Origin: a bacterium
GTDB taxonomy: Bacteria > DYJV01 > JALVYZ01
Direction: 5' to 3'
Length of the DNA: 9,052 nt
Assembly (NCBI GenBank): GCA_027037705.1
Contig: JALVYZ010000289.1
Coordinates: 1-9,052, forward strand
The position numbers were made by a program, and so were the translations under genes. The notes under the pieces were generated by a model. That model made no database searches and was not told where the DNA came from. It saw only the letters and a list, made by a program, of their open reading frames with translations. Positions 1 to 5,571 of this stretch are shown one piece after another (position 1 is the stretch's first letter; every line of letters starts with the position of its first letter).

Positions 1-1444
1 TAATCTGTTTTTCTGTTCTGATTTTATTAAGTAAATCTGAGTAATTATTATCAAGAAAATCATATAACTCTTTCTCAAATCTCTGTAAAACTTCAACTGG
101 ATATTCATCTAAAAATCCATTTGTTGCGGCATAAATAATCATAACTTGTTTTTCAACTGGAAGTGGTTGGTACTGATCTTGTTTTAAAATCTCAACAAGT
201 CTTTGTCCTCTTGCTAATTGCATTTGAGTAGCTTTATCTAAATCTGAACCAAATTGTGCAAATGCTTCCAATTCTCTAAATTGTGCAAGTTCAAGTCTTA
301 ATCTTCCTGCTACCTGTTTCATAGCTTTTATTTGAGCATTACCACCAACTCTTGATACTGAAAGGCCAACATTAATAGCAGGTCTAACCCCTGAGTAGAA
401 TAAATCAGTTTCAAGATAAATCTGTCCATCAGTAATAGAAATAACATTTGTTGGAATATATGCTGAAACGTCACCAGCTTGTGTTTCAATAATTGGTAAT
501 GCAGTTAAGGAACCACCACCATGTGAATCATTTAATTTTGCAGCTCTTTCTAATAATCTTGAGTGTGTATAAAAAATATCTCCAGGATATGCTTCTCTTC
601 CAGGTGGTCTTCTAAGTAAAAGTGATAACTGCCTATAAGCTTGAGCTTGTTTTGTAAGGTCATCATAAATAATTAACGCATGCATTCCATTATCTCTAAA
701 ATATTCACCCATTGAACATCCAGAATATGGAGCAATATATTGCAATGGTGCAGGCTCACTTGCAGTTGCAGCAACCACTATAGTATACTCCATAGCTCCA
801 TACTCTTCAAGGGTTGCCACAACCTTTGCAACTGTTGATCTTTTTTGACCAATTGCAACATAAATACAATAACAATTATTACCTTTTTGATTTATTATAG
901 TATCTATAGCTATTGCTGTCTTACCTGTTTGCCTATCCCCAATAATCAACTCTCTCTGCCCTCTACCAATAGGAATCATTGAATCAATTGCTTTTAATCC
1001 AGTTTGTAATGGTTCGTGAACAGGTTGTCTTAAAACAATACCAGGAGCTTTAACTTCAACAACTCTTGTTTCTTCTGATTGAATGGGTCCTTTACCATCA
1101 ATTGGTCTACCTAACGGATCAACCACTCTTCCTAATAATGCTTTTCCCACAGGAACCTGGAAAATTCTACCTGTTCTTTTAACAGTATCGCCCTCTTTGA
1201 TGTGAATATCTTCACCCATAATTGCAACACCAACATTATCTTCTTCAAGATTAAGAACAAGTCCATATATTCCACCACCAAATTCAACAAGCTCTCCTGT
1301 CATAACCTTTTCAAGACCATAAATTCTTGCAATACCGTCACCAACACTTAAAACAGTTCCTGTTTCGCTAACATCAATCTTTTTTTCATAATCTTTGATG
1401 TGGGACTTTAATACACTGGTTATCTCATCAGCTTTTAATTGCAT
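1..1444 (-). CDS. atpA: F-type ATP synthase subunit alpha, 3' end missing
   Basis: Alpha subunit of the F1 head, the non-catalytic nucleotide-binding partner of beta in the cytoplasmic alpha3beta3 hexamer. 481 codons are present; the usual length is about 500-510, so roughly the last 20 are off the left edge. The N-terminus [20 protein letters not shown] is typical for alpha. The Walker A motif GDRQTGKT is at residues 169-176, the same place as in E. coli. The alpha signature [14 protein letters not shown] is present, with the arginine that reaches into the beta catalytic site at R365 (codon at 350-352). The ATG at 1444 follows the atpH stop by 4 nt, with the ribosome site AAGGGG overlapping the end of atpH, so the two are likely translationally coupled. 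No frameshift or missing key residue is seen. Identity is secure. Confidence 0.97.
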
Positions 1445-1448
1445 ATCT

Positions 1449-1991
1449 CTACCCCTTTAAGATTTTTTCTTTTATTTTTAATAAATGTGATTTTAAAGAA
1501 CCATCATAAATTAAACCTTCTGTTTTAACAATTAATCCTCCAATAATCTCAGGTTCAACTTTTGATTTAATTTCAATTTTTTTCCCAGTTTTTTCCTCAA
1601 GTTTTTTCTTGATATCATTAATTATTTTTGCATCAAGGTCAATTGCACTTATAACCTCATAATCTGCAATACCAACATAATCTCTATATTTTTTCCTAAA
1701 AACTTCTGTAATTGTAGTAATAAATTTAATTTTATTTTTATCAACTAATAATTTAAAAAAATTTATTGATAATGAATCAAAATTAAACTTTTTAGCAAGT
1801 TCCTCAATAATTGCTTTTTTTTCTTCACGAGAAACAGCACTTGTCTCCATAACAATTTTAAATTCTTTGCTTTTTGTAAAAATCTCTGAAAAAATTTCAA
1901 GGTCATTTAATAGCTTTTCAAGATTATTATTCTCTATTCCTACTTCAAATAATGCTTGAGAATATCTGTTTGCAACTTTATACTTAATCAT
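1449..1991 (-). CDS. atpH: F-type ATP synthase subunit delta (OSCP)
   Basis: Delta links the top of the F1 alpha3beta3 head to the peripheral b stalk and keeps the stator from turning. The protein has 180 residues, the usual family length. The N-terminal helical domain starts with [14 protein letters not shown], the typical 'YA.ALF' opening of the OSCP family. The C-terminal region holds the conserved stretch [18 protein letters not shown] (about residues 149-166), which matches the family signature of a Gly-Gly followed by an Asp-Gly-Ser. The ATG at 1991 shares its A with the stop of the upstream b gene (TAATG), a 1-nt overlap that suggests coupled translation. It lies between b and alpha, the normal operon position. 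The protein is rich in Lys and Ile, in line with the low-G+C genome. Confidence 0.95.
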
Positions 1992-2554
1992 TAGCTCACC
2001 ATCCTTTCAATAGTTTCTTTTATTAACTTTTGATGGTCATCTTTTGTAATATTTCTTTTTAACAATTCAGTTGCAAGATTAATAACCTTTTCAGTTGCTT
2101 GAACTTTCAATAATTCCTTTTCTTTTTCAAACTCCTGCTGAGCCAACACTTTTGCCTGTTCTATAATTTTTTTTGCTTTCTCTTCAGCTTCTCTTAATAT
2201 CCTTTCTTTTTCTGCCTGAGCTTCTTTTTTCATTCTTTCAATTATGTCAGTTTTCTCTTTTTCAAGATTTTTTATTTTTTCTTGGTATTCTTTAAACTTT
2301 TCTTCTGCTTTAATCCTTGCCTCTTCAGCTTCTTTTAGTGCAACTTCTACCTGTTCTTTTCTTGAATATAAAAATTCACTAATAGGTTTCCTTAAAACTT
2401 TATATAAGAAGAACACTAAAATACCAAAATTAATAATTCTCCATAAAAAGTCCCATAACATCTGCTTTGTAACTCCATGGGCACCATGTCCTTCTGCTGC
2501 AAAAAGAGAAGCAGAAAATAATAAAAAAATTATTACTGAAAAAAACTTTTTCAT
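1991..2554 (-). CDS. atpF: F-type ATP synthase subunit b with N-terminal signal peptide
   Basis: Peripheral-stalk b subunit (187 residues). I chose the ATG at 2554 because it has a strong ribosome site (GGAAGGGAG at 2563-2571, 8-nt spacer) and opens a classic signal peptide: MKK, a hydrophobic core to about residue 18, then a small-residue cleavage region near A19/A20. The open frame extends 11 codons further upstream, but that ATG lies inside the preceding gene and would bury the signal peptide. After a short His/Gly-rich segment (HGAHG) comes one membrane helix (about 31-50), then a long charged coiled coil rich in Glu, Lys and Ala. Signal-peptide b subunits paired with a b' subunit are known, as I recall, from deltaproteobacteria-like lineages. 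The gene starts 2 nt after the b' stop and overlaps atpH by 1 nt. Family assignment is firm; the signal peptide is read from its pattern only. Confidence 0.93.
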   Translation of the reverse strand: MKKFFSVIIFLLFSASLFAAEGHGAHGVTKQMLWDFLWRIINFGILVFFLYKVLRKPISEFLYSRKEQVEVALKEAEEARIKAEEKFKEYQEKIKNLEKEKTDIIERMKKEAQAEKERILREAEEKAKKIIEQAKVLAQQEFEKEKELLKVQATEKVINLATELLKRNITKDDHQKLIKETIERMVS

Positions 2555-2556
2555 CT

Positions 2557-2982
2557 CTAAATCTCCCTTCCAAGTAATGTAGAACAAATTGATTTCGCAA
2601 TACTTTCTACATCTTTTTCAAGCTCAGCTGAAATCTGGTTCTTATTTTTTTCTAATTGGGATTTAAATTCTTCTAAATATTTATTTGCTTCTTCTTTTGC
2701 ACGAGCTAACTTTTCATTTAAAATTCTAGTTGCTTCATCTCTTGCAGAAATTTTTATAGATGCTCCCTCATTTTTTGCTTTTTCAAGCTCTTTTCTATAC
2801 TGTTCATATCCTGTTTCTATTTTCTCTTCAAGTTCTTTTGCTTTTTCATAATCTGATTCGACTCTATTTTTCCTTTCATCAAGGACCTTTAACATTGGCT
2901 TGAATAAAAATTTATTCAAAAACCACATTAAAAATATAAAATTTATAATCTGGATAATTAAGGTAGCATTTAAGCTTATCAC
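2557..2982 (-). CDS. F-type ATP synthase subunit b' (second b-type stalk subunit), GTG start
   Basis: A second b-type subunit, 141 residues, likely pairing with the downstream b protein as a b/b' heterodimer in the peripheral stalk. The start is GTG (2980-2982), supported by GAGGTG at 2988-2993 with a 5-nt spacer; the next Met is at residue 19, inside the membrane helix, so GTG is the better choice. One N-terminal membrane helix (about residues 5-27, ending NKFLFKP) is followed by VLDERKNRVESD, the typical b/b' juncture (compare 'P....L..R...I..D'), and then a continuous Lys/Glu/Ala-rich coiled coil to the end. There is no signal peptide, unlike the next gene. It sits 22 nt after subunit c and 2 nt before b. 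It could equally be named atpF2 or atpX; I leave the symbol blank because usage varies. Confidence 0.92.
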   Translation of the reverse strand: MISLNATLIIQIINFIFLMWFLNKFLFKPMLKVLDERKNRVESDYEKAKELEEKIETGYEQYRKELEKAKNEGASIKISARDEATRILNEKLARAKEEANKYLEEFKSQLEKNKNQISAELEKDVESIAKSICSTLLGREI

Positions 2983-3004: not shown

Positions 3005-3271
<267 letters not shown>

Positions 3272-3997
3272 TTATTTAATAACAAAAAGTAACACAAGTG
3301 AAATAACCATTGCATATATACTTGTTGATTGGCTTACAGCTTGACCAATCAACATTGTTCTTAAAAGAACTGGAGACAATTCTTTATTTTTTCCTATCCC
3401 TTCAACAGCAGCACCAGCTGCAATACCTCCTCCAATTCCTGGGCCAACAGCTCCAAATCCCATTGAAATTCCCGCAGAAAAAACAGCAGCAGCAATTGTA
3501 ATTTTCATAGCAACTGAAAAATTCATAAATAATAATAATAATGAAACAAAAAGCGCAAAGATAGTTGGCGTCTGGTCAACAGCTTGACCAACTAACATTG
3601 CAGTCATTATTTTTCCAGAGACAGAAGGATTTCTTGCAAGAGTTTCACAAGCTTTTGCCCCTGGAAATCCACATCCAATCCCAGAACCTAATGCTCCCAT
3701 TCCCATACAAAAGCCAGTTGAAATCATTGCAGAAGCCTGAGTTATATTATTCCCAGAATATGTTTTAAAAAGTAAAAGTATAGCAATTACAAGGGAAAAT
3801 ATTGCTGCAGTTTCAGTAATTGCCTGACCAATTAACATCATTTTTAAAACATCACCAGACATTGCAGGCTGGCGGGAAATACCACGACTTGCACTTCCAG
3901 CAATAAAACCTTCACCAACTGCTGCACCAATTGCACCTAATCCCATACAAAGACCTGCACCAAAAAAACCACTTGCATTAATCCAAGATACGTCCAT
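3272..3997 (-). CDS. Fused triple-hairpin F-type c subunit with only one intact ion site
   Basis: A 241-residue proteolipid made of three c-type hairpins in tandem, so six membrane helices: about residues 8-78, 87-158 and 166-240. Each repeat has the Gly-rich helix 1 and the helix-2 motif M(L)xGQA. Hairpin 1 keeps both carboxylates, E29 (in VGEGF) and E62 (in AITETAA). Hairpin 2 has C109 and Q142 at these places, with an Asp at 141 next to Q142; hairpin 3 has G190 and Q223 (AVSQSTS). Only one third of the protein can therefore bind the ion in the usual way. The frame is open throughout, so this is not a decayed gene. The ATG at 3997 directly follows the atpB stop (TAAATG), with AGGTGA upstream. 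Duplicated c subunits with lost carboxylates are known in V-type ATPases and in Acetobacterium woodii c1; a bacterial triple with one site is unusual to my knowledge. It probably shares a ring with the 82-residue c, but that is inferred. Confidence 0.92.
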   Translation of the reverse strand: MDVSWINASGFFGAGLCMGLGAIGAAVGEGFIAGSASRGISRQPAMSGDVLKMMLIGQAITETAAIFSLVIAILLLFKTYSGNNITQASAMISTGFCMGMGALGSGIGCGFPGAKACETLARNPSVSGKIMTAMLVGQAVDQTPTIFALFVSLLLLFMNFSVAMKITIAAAVFSAGISMGFGAVGPGIGGGIAAGAAVEGIGKNKELSPVLLRTMLIGQAVSQSTSIYAMVISLVLLFVIK

Positions 3998-4672
3998 TTA
4001 TTCTTTCACCTGTAATGTAATATATACTAATGTTAACATTGCAAAAACAAATGCTTGAATTGTTCCATCAAAGAGACCAAAAAAAGCATATAGAAACGGT
4101 GGTAAAACTAAATTATGAACAAGATGGCTAACAACAATTATAATGATAGAGCCTCCCATAATATTTCCAAATAATCTGAATGAAATTGAAACTATTTTTG
4201 CAAGCTCCCCAATTAAATTTAATGGTGCCATTATAAAAAAAGGTTGTAAATATTCAGATAAATATTTTTTTAATCCTTTAACTTTTATTCCAGAATAATG
4301 AGCTATTACAAAACCCATTATTCCATATCCTAAAGGGGTATTTAAATCTTTTGTAGGTTCTTCGCAACCTGGAATAATTCCAATAATATTGCATAAAAAT
4401 AGAAAAATAAAAAGAGCTGTTATTAAAGCATAATATTTTCTATCATCAGTTTCAAGAGTATCTTTGACTAATTTATCAAATCCTTCAATGAGTGGTTCTA
4501 TAATAGTTTGAAGAGTATTAGGGATTAATGAAGCTTTTTTATACAAAATTAATGATAAAATCATTAAAAATGCCATAATGATCCAGCTCATAATTATTGT
4601 TTCAGTATTAACAGTTATATTATAACCAAATAGATGGAATGTAATTTTTACTATTTTACCAATCTCTTCCAT
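3998..4672 (-). CDS. atpB: F-type ATP synthase subunit a
   Basis: Stator membrane subunit that forms the two ion half-channels against the c ring. It has 224 residues, shorter than E. coli a (271) but normal for compact bacterial versions. Hydrophobic segments lie near residues 26-44, 82-101, 113-127, 145-165 (amphipathic) and 172-220, fitting the five or six helices of the family. The essential arginine is R166 in ISFRLFGNIMGG, and the conserved PLNLIGELAK run precedes it (150-159). The loop PTKDLNTPLG (106-115) is also typical. The ATG at 4672 overlaps the atpI stop by 1 nt (TAATG), with GGAGG 4 nt upstream, so coupling is likely. The next gene starts directly after the stop codon. Confidence 0.96.
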   Translation of the reverse strand: MEEIGKIVKITFHLFGYNITVNTETIIMSWIIMAFLMILSLILYKKASLIPNTLQTIIEPLIEGFDKLVKDTLETDDRKYYALITALFIFLFLCNIIGIIPGCEEPTKDLNTPLGYGIMGFVIAHYSGIKVKGLKKYLSEYLQPFFIMAPLNLIGELAKIVSISFRLFGNIMGGSIIIIVVSHLVHNLVLPPFLYAFFGLFDGTIQAFVFAMLTLVYITLQVKE

Positions 4673-5037
4673 TAGTCCTCCAACTTCCCTAATAATAATG
4701 AACAGAAAATAGAAAATTGCATTGACAATAATCCTAAAATCGTTCCACCTAACCCTATATAACTTTTTTTAAATGAAGCAATTATTGCAAATGCAAAGAG
4801 TAGATACCTTAAAAAAAACCATCTTTGAGAATAAGAAAAAAATCTATCTTTTAAAAAAATTATTTTTTCATTAGTTTTTGCTAATAAAAAAAAGTTAGCA
4901 AGACTAACAATTGCACCCAAAATAAAACCATTCGCTTCTTTTATCAAATTTAATGTATAAAAAAGACTTAATACAATTATTGAAAAGATTATATGATATT
5001 TGACTAATTTTCCTTTAAATTTTATGTAGGTTTCCAT
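4672..5037 (-). CDS. atpI: AtpI-like membrane protein, ATP synthase assembly factor
   Basis: A 121-residue protein with four predicted membrane helices (about residues 13-31, 35-52, 72-88 and 92-117) and no soluble domain. Sequence similarity is weak to the eye, as is usual for the AtpI family. The call rests on size, the helix pattern (including NGFILGAIVSLANFFLL, like the second helix of AtpI), and position directly before atpB at the head of the operon. AtpI is known to assist c-ring assembly, notably in Na+ enzymes such as those of Propionigenium and Acetobacterium. The frame is closed upstream by an in-frame TGA 21 nt before the ATG, so the start is constrained. The ribosome site is weak (GGGAAA just upstream). 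It overlaps atpB by 1 nt. Confidence 0.8.
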   Translation of the reverse strand: METYIKFKGKLVKYHIIFSIIVLSLFYTLNLIKEANGFILGAIVSLANFFLLAKTNEKIIFLKDRFFSYSQRWFFLRYLLFAFAIIASFKKSYIGLGGTILGLLSMQFSIFCSLLLGKLED

Positions 5038-5094: not shown

Positions 5095-5571
5095 TTAATT
5101 TTTTTTAAAAGTAAATTCAACTATAAATTTACCTTTATCAGTGATAAAAGGTAAAACAATAATTGGTTTTGAAACTATATGTTGGATAGTGTGATTACTC
5201 CCAAAAAGTATTGATGGGCTTGTAGTTTCTATATTAATTCCATCCTTTCGTAACAGATTAACTGCATTTGCAGAAATTGAACTTATAAGTTCTTTTACAC
5301 TATTTTTTACTTCATCACTATCTAAATTATCAATTTCTTTTTCTAAAATTTTTGAAATAATATATTTTATTGTTTCTTCTTCAAAAGTTATACACATTGA
5401 ACCTGTTATATCTCCACTAATCATAATTATTCCAGATATAATCCCAAGAGCTAATTCATCTTTTTTAATATAAGGTTTTTCAGGATGAGATTTTAAAGAA
5501 TATTTATCTTTAAAAATATCGATTATAGAAGATAAGAATGGATTAATATATTTAACATCTATATAAGGCAT
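5095..5571 (-). CDS. CheX-like protein with altered phosphatase motif
   Basis: 158-residue soluble protein of the CheC/CheX/FliY family. The opening DVKYINPFLSSIIDIFK, the central Gly-rich strands (ALGIISGIIMISGDITGSM) and the helix ELISSISANAVNLL match CheX layout. CheX dephosphorylates the response regulator CheY-P; its active site is E-x-x-N on the long helix. Here E94 is present but the position of the Asn, residue 97, is Ser, so ordinary catalysis may be weak or absent; N102 lines up with the second, non-catalytic Asn of the helix. It follows cysS by 12 nt and precedes the atp operon; no other chemotaxis gene is in view. The start is fixed by GGGGTG upstream and by family fit. Many CheX-like proteins work outside chemotaxis, so its partner is open. 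Confidence 0.82.
   Translation of the reverse strand: MPYIDVKYINPFLSSIIDIFKDKYSLKSHPEKPYIKKDELALGIISGIIMISGDITGSMCITFEEETIKYIISKILEKEIDNLDSDEVKNSVKELISSISANAVNLLRKDGINIETTSPSILFGSNHTIQHIVSKPIIVLPFITDKGKFIVEFTFKKN

What the first reader, a model, noticed from the sequence alone, without database searches (positions are those of the whole stretch)
3272..3997. Triple-hairpin c subunit with one ion-binding glutamate in six membrane helices
Three fused c hairpins are read directly from the frame. Only hairpin 1 keeps the carboxylates (E29, E62). Hairpins 2 and 3 have Gln at the key site (Q142, codon CAG at 3572-3574; Q223, codon CAA at 3329-3331) and Cys or Gly in helix 1. Known duplicated proteolipids with lost carboxylates occur in V-type ATPases and in A. 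woodii c1 (two hairpins, one site). One site per three hairpins in a bacterial F-type operon would be a more extreme case. If it enters the ring, the ion-to-ATP ratio drops and the enzyme would favour ATP-driven ion pumping.
Basis: partly seen in the sequence, partly recalled or inferred. Interest (0 to 1): 0.85.

Follow-up and report, generated by a model that had tools for sequence, protein, structure and literature searches.

The report
Rotor protein with mostly blanked ion sites
A bacterial ATP-making machine carries, beside its normal rotor protein, a triple-length rotor protein in which two of three ion-binding sites are blanked, and relatives in many little-known bacterial lineages (some with every site blanked) show that this is a conserved design, not an error.

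Summary
Window 3997-3272 (-) is an intact 241-residue frame with three ATP-synthase c hairpins. Hairpin 1 keeps E29/E62; hairpins 2 and 3 have Gln (Q142, Q223) at the key site. The gene lies between subunit a and an ordinary c gene whose residues match the two-carboxylate Na+ site of Fusobacterium.

It is not unique. Sampling several hundred genomes gave 47 fully read fused c proteins of 2-4 hairpins in many lineages. Wherever the downstream gene could be read, a single E/E c gene accompanies the fused one. Helix-2 patterns grade from EEE through EQE and EQQ (window) to SQQ, GQ and GQQQ (no carboxylate). Blank hairpins are under purifying selection, and Gln at the middle site is 26/29 conserved. 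N-terminal hairpins cluster across lineages. The nearest solved structure is A. woodii c1, the known two-hairpin hybrid-rotor subunit.

Best reading: a minority ring subunit that lowers ions per ATP, as in A. woodii c1, but with two or more adjacent blanks. Single c has the stronger ribosome-binding site in 36/41 loci, which fits a minority role. Ring entry, copy number and the energetic effect are unproven. Caveat: window hairpin 2 has D141 beside Q142. New variant of a known kind.

The parts
3272..3997 (-). Triple-hairpin c subunit, 241 aa, helix-2 key residues E,Q,Q
   Evidence: open frame; three PF00137 stretches; AF2 model mean pLDDT 94.6, six TM helices
3767..3991 (-). Hairpin 1 (residues 3-77), E29 (codon 3913-3911) and E62 (codon 3814-3812): site-bearing
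   Evidence: hairpin HMM
3527..3754 (-). Hairpin 2 (residues 82-157), Cys in helix 1, Q142 (3574-3572) at key site, D141 (3577-3575) beside it
   Evidence: Q at this site in 26 of 29 middle hairpins of triples
3284..3511 (-). Hairpin 3 (residues 163-238), Gly in helix 1, Q223 (3331-3329) at key site
3005..3253 (-). Ordinary single-hairpin c subunit, 82 aa, E32, V63, E65, S66, T67, Y70 as in the two-carboxylate Na+ site of F. nucleatum
   Evidence: PMC3692424
3260..3265 (-). Strong Shine-Dalgarno (AGGAGG) of the single c gene; the triple gene has only a weak one at about 3998-4012
   Evidence: -10.8 versus -3.8 kcal/mol
3998..4672 (-). Subunit a (atpB), with the stator Arg in FRLFGN
   Evidence: PF00119 E=5e-49
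4672..5037 (-). AtpI-like protein
   Evidence: PF03899 E=1.4e-6
2557..2982 (-). Subunit b
   Evidence: PF00430
1991..2587 (-). Second b-type subunit (b')
   Evidence: PF00430
1449..1991 (-). Probable subunit delta (by position and sequence; not scanned against a library)
2..1444 (-). Subunit alpha (cut by window end)
   Evidence: sequence; genome search

Best explanation
The 241-aa protein is a minority rotor subunit of a Na+-type F1FO-ATPase. One (or few) copies insert into a c ring otherwise built of the co-encoded single-hairpin c subunit. The triple contributes three hairpins to the ring circumference but only one full carboxylate site, so each turn carries two fewer Na+ per copy and the ions-per-ATP ratio falls. 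Gln mimics a permanently neutral (ion-loaded) Glu, so blank hairpins can pass through lipid and past subunit a without binding or releasing an ion; rotation across the two-hairpin gap must be carried by the neighbouring sites or by F1. Shown here: the sequence, the operon, the conserved pairing with an intact c, the selection on blank hairpins, the predicted fold. Inferred: ring entry, copy number, Na+ use, the lower ratio, the way the gap is crossed.
For: Gene order a / fused c / single c / b / b' / delta / alpha. The fused c is followed by a single c with helix-1 Glu, helix-2 Glu, then Ser/Thr and Tyr in 41 of 41 loci where both were read, matching the Na+ ligands in PMC3692424. Nearest solved structure is A. 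woodii c1, 4bem_J: sequence E=5e-26, fold Z 18.6, rmsd 1.8; c1 is likewise E,Q and lies in a solved ring with nine c2 chains (PMC7911925). Ring-packing glycines of blank helices are invariant and Q142 at least 90% conserved in 23 triples. dN/dS of blank hairpins in close pairs is about 0.01-0.2 wherever dS could be measured, like site-bearing ones. Single c has the stronger ribosome-binding site in 36 of 41 loci (Wilcoxon p 3.5e-7), fitting a minority role for the fused protein. Operons with fused c cluster in the subunit-a tree, and first hairpins cluster across lineages.
Against: No protein-level data: ring membership and copy number are untested. A single E56Q in a fused c10 ring of Bacillus PS3 abolished ATP synthesis (Mitome 2004 as cited in PMC8809890), so two adjacent Gln hairpins might stall an F-type motor. 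D141 might partly replace the carboxylate in hairpin 2. No Rnf/Nqr-type Na+ pump (PF03116) was found in this genome. Loci share ancestry, so the Shine-Dalgarno p value is not from independent trials, and translational coupling to subunit a could offset the weak site.
Confidence: 0.7

Rival explanations
1. Ring member without adaptive effect: fused, partly blanked hairpins became fixed by duplication and complementary loss (a neutral ratchet, as proposed for the fungal V-ATPase ring; from my own knowledge) and are now needed only for assembly.
For: Hairpin number and blanking change many times on the subunit-a tree, even within one genus (E,S,Q,Q versus E,E,Q,Q); all-intact EEE triples exist in Omnitrophota.
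Against: Middle-hairpin Gln is conserved in 26 of 29 triples, and blank states persist across many lineages rather than being reversed.
Confidence: 0.2
2. Not in the rotor: the fused c is an assembly scaffold or regulator of the ring; most plausible for the zero-carboxylate members.
For: Ten fully read relatives have no carboxylate (SQQ x7, GQ x2, GQQQ); weak ribosome-binding sites; a single Gln stalls the PS3 enzyme.
Against: Ring-packing Gly motifs and hairpin spacing are kept; closest solved relative c1 is a ring member; AtpI, a known ring-assembly factor, is already in the operon.
Confidence: 0.09
3. Artefact: frameshift, misassembly or pseudogene joining separate c genes.
For: Fragmented assembly of 496 contigs.
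Against: Same architecture in dozens of independent assemblies and low dN/dS.
Confidence: 0.01

Closest known systems
Acetobacterium woodii / Clostridium aceticum subunit c1 (AtpE1) of the F/V hybrid rotor (PDB 4bem chain J)
   Same: F-type operon, fused c gene accompanied by single c gene; Glu in hairpin 1 and Gln in the last hairpin; same fold (Z 18.6)
   Different: Two hairpins, one blank; helix-1 ligand Gln rather than Glu; here three hairpins with two adjacent blanks, and 2-4 hairpins with 0-3 Glu in relatives
Fusobacterium nucleatum two-carboxylate c ring (3zk1)
   Same: E32, V63, E65, S66, T67, Y70 of the co-encoded single c
   Different: That ring has one kind of c subunit; no fused blanked subunit
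V/A-type proteolipids (eukaryotic V-ATPase c, E. hirae K, Methanocaldococcus jannaschii triple, Methanopyrus 13-hairpin K)
   Same: Fused hairpins, often with lost ligands (PMC2359735)
   Different: Those belong to V/A-type enzymes; here an F-type operon with a separate intact single c

Membership tests
ATP synthase subunit c (PF00137) | PF00137 match over the curated cut-off, in each of the hairpins | tested here: met
   136.6 bits versus 24, three stretches
F/V hybrid rotor, c1 type (A. woodii) | Fused c gene beside a single c gene in an F1FO operon | tested here: met
F/V hybrid rotor, c1 type (A. woodii) | At least one hairpin without the helix-2 carboxylate | tested here: met
   Q142, Q223; D141 next to Q142 is a caveat
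F/V hybrid rotor, c1 type (A. woodii) | Exactly two hairpins (four helices) | tested here: not met
   three hairpins, six helices; so a variant of, not a member of, the c1 type as described
F/V hybrid rotor, c1 type (A. woodii) | Helix-1 Gln ligand in site-bearing hairpins (motif Q....ET) | tested here: not met
   Glu at this place in hairpin 1 and in the single c
F/V hybrid rotor, c1 type (A. woodii) | Fused protein present in the assembled ring | not testable with these tools
   needs purified enzyme
Two-carboxylate Na+ c ring (F. nucleatum type) | E32, V63, E65, S66, Y70 in the single c | tested here: met
   window 3005-3253 sequence against PMC3692424
Two-carboxylate Na+ c ring (F. nucleatum type) | Na+ is the coupling ion | not testable with these tools
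   needs Na+-dependent ATPase assay
V/A-type ATPase proteolipid | V/A-type operon (A, B, D, E, I subunits) | tested here: not met
   neighbours are F-type a, b, alpha

The most novel reading that the evidence does not exclude
A widespread class of natural F-type rotors carries arcs of two to four consecutive ion-free hairpins (including fused subunits with no carboxylate at all) beside intact single c subunits, so the motor must cross gaps as wide as the a/c contact, and bacteria tune ions per ATP by fusing and blanking hairpins rather than by ring size alone.
Probability: 0.5. Interest if true: 0.82.

Novelty: new variant of a known kind. Interest (0 to 1): 0.68.

Why it matters
Present models put two or three ionised carboxylates at the a/c contact, and one Gln in a PS3 ring stops ATP synthesis. 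A natural series running from no blanks to all blanks, beside an intact c, makes the question of how many empty positions an F-type motor can cross, and what that does to the ions-per-ATP ratio, directly testable. It also suggests that hybrid rotors are spread over many uncultured bacterial lineages well beyond the acetogens in which they were studied.

Tried and rejected
Frameshift, misassembly or pseudogene: rejected by conserved architecture and low dN/dS. Independent duplication in each lineage: not favoured, since first hairpins cluster across lineages, but the tree has only 74 columns and middle and last hairpins are unresolved, so the order of fusions is open. Assigning each hairpin to window h1/h2/h3 by similarity score was inconclusive because the conserved single c attracts many. 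Na+ circuit: PF03116 (Rnf/Nqr) not found in a 93% complete genome; other Na+ pumps not searched. Quadruples E,Q,E,D (L011, L055) look like a separate, divergent group and were left out of counts. Fragments at contig ends (L010, L053, L059, L071, L072) and the incompletely read L070 are not counted as complete proteins. Foldseek and VIA rows of designed repeat proteins were ignored as common helical arrangements. The Matthies 2014 paper is not held. Five searches with c-ring and hybrid-rotor terms returned no paper I recognised, by title or abstract, as describing a triple or quadruple F-type c; subscription papers, among them Brandt and Mueller 2015 on hybrid-rotor distribution, are not held, so prior description is not excluded.

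Full report
What is there. The window holds, on the minus strand, an F-type ATP synthase operon: AtpI-like protein, subunit a, the 241-aa fused c, an 82-aa single c, two b-type subunits, a probable delta, and alpha. The finding's coordinates, frame, three hairpins and residues E29, E62, Q142 and Q223 are all correct.

It is conserved. In the order-mate genome G001 the protein is 57% identical, with the same E,Q,Q pattern and the same following single c. In a spread of 386 genomes, 22 have a strong match. Within small related groups all members have one (12 of 12; 4 of 4), in another phylum 17 of 74. In the phylum of an Omnitrophota genome 15 of 285 genomes matched the profile of triples, but nine of these matches were single c genes only. 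Named hosts include Candidatus Theseobacter exili (Auribacterota) and an Omnitrophota bacterium.

A graded series. Parsing hairpins with a profile gave, for 47 fully read fused proteins, these helix-2 residues from N to C: EQE 13, SQQ 7, EQQ 6, EQ 4, EEE 3, EEQQ 2, EGS 2, EE 2, EG 2, GQ 2, and one each of ESQQ, ESSQ, GQQQ and EQH. Ten have no carboxylate at this site, and 23 have at least two blanks in a row. (The script's totals of 48, 24 and 11 include L070, whose third hairpin is incompletely read and which I left out.) The single c beside them is invariably the two-carboxylate type (41 of 41).

The blanks are maintained. In close pairs blank hairpins have dN/dS of about 0.01-0.2 wherever dS could be measured, in the range of the Glu-bearing ones. 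In the alignment of 23 triples several inner-helix glycines of each hairpin are invariant and Q142 is at least 90% conserved; the middle hairpin of triples is Gln in 26 of 29. Decay would not give this.

History. In a tree of subunit a, operons with a fused c fall together (49 rows including one single-c operon, support 95/68), across lineages that share only the domain, while the number of hairpins changes repeatedly. First hairpins cluster across lineages whatever the total number (97/82), pointing to one old extra-c gene. Middle and last hairpins are not resolved. Three genomes carry a separate single-hairpin blank c (Ser at the key site) in addition to an E/E c (L012, L112, L113), perhaps the unfused form.

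Structure. The AlphaFold2 model is confident (mean pLDDT 94.6). Its best match is A. woodii c1 (Z 18.6, rmsd 1.8 over 158 residues, 36% identity; also first by sequence). In C. aceticum and A. woodii, c1 has the Na+ site in one hairpin and Q....QT in the other (PMC7911925), and the A. woodii ring has 10 Na+ sites, 3.3 per ATP (PMC7793690).

Most likely mechanism. A minority of fused subunits enters a ring mainly of single c. Consistent with unequal synthesis, the single c gene has the stronger Shine-Dalgarno site in 36 of 41 loci (mean -10.2 versus -6.0 kcal/mol; window -10.8 versus -3.8); loci are related, so the p value is only a guide. As arithmetic only: a ring of 11 hairpins with one EQQ subunit would have 9 full sites, 3.0 ions per ATP instead of 3.67, and would need about 173 mV rather than 141 mV to make ATP at 50 kJ/mol. 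Ring size is unknown here. In the site between neighbouring hairpins one boundary would lack the helix-1 Glu (Cys of hairpin 2 or Gly of hairpin 3), so that site may bind Na+ less well; which one depends on handedness and was not modelled.

The tension. In a fused c10 ring of Bacillus PS3 a single E56Q stopped ATP synthesis, and two or three carboxylates are thought to act together at subunit a (PMC8809890). Either these natural motors tolerate wider gaps, or the fused proteins, above all the zero-carboxylate ones, do something else. This is what makes the family worth an experiment.

Verdict. Observation confirmed; interpretation partly supported. It works like A. woodii c1 but does not meet that type's two-hairpin definition: a new variant of a known kind.

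Noticed in passing
L094 7095-10693 (same genome, C142) and L095 5807-9432 (order-mate): A second FO cassette: two small AtpI-like proteins, subunit a, an H+-type c (Ile in helix 1, Glu in helix 2), then a NapC/NrfH-like multihaem cytochrome and a Rex-like regulator (named from sequence, not scanned). No b, delta, alpha or beta beside it, and each genome showed only one F-type alpha and one beta: possibly two exchangeable ion motors for one F1, under redox control.
   Followed up: partly
window 3575-3577: D141 beside the blank Q142; no other aligned triple has an acid there.
   Followed up: partly
L011 and L055: Quadruple c of 317 aa with E,Q,E,D in two genomes of about 1.2-1.3 Mb (one genus); no single c seen in the stretch read.
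   Followed up: no
L012, L112, L113: Separate single-hairpin c genes with Ser at the key site, on the same strand upstream of an intact c gene.
   Followed up: partly
L101, L102, L103: Triple c proteins with all three Glu sites intact in Omnitrophota: same fusion without blanking.
   Followed up: partly
window 5095-5571: CheX-like chemotaxis phosphatase gene directly upstream of the ATP synthase operon.
   Followed up: no
window 1991-2587: The second b subunit begins with a signal-peptide-like stretch (MKKFFSVIIFLLFSASLFAAEG) before its membrane helix.
   Followed up: no
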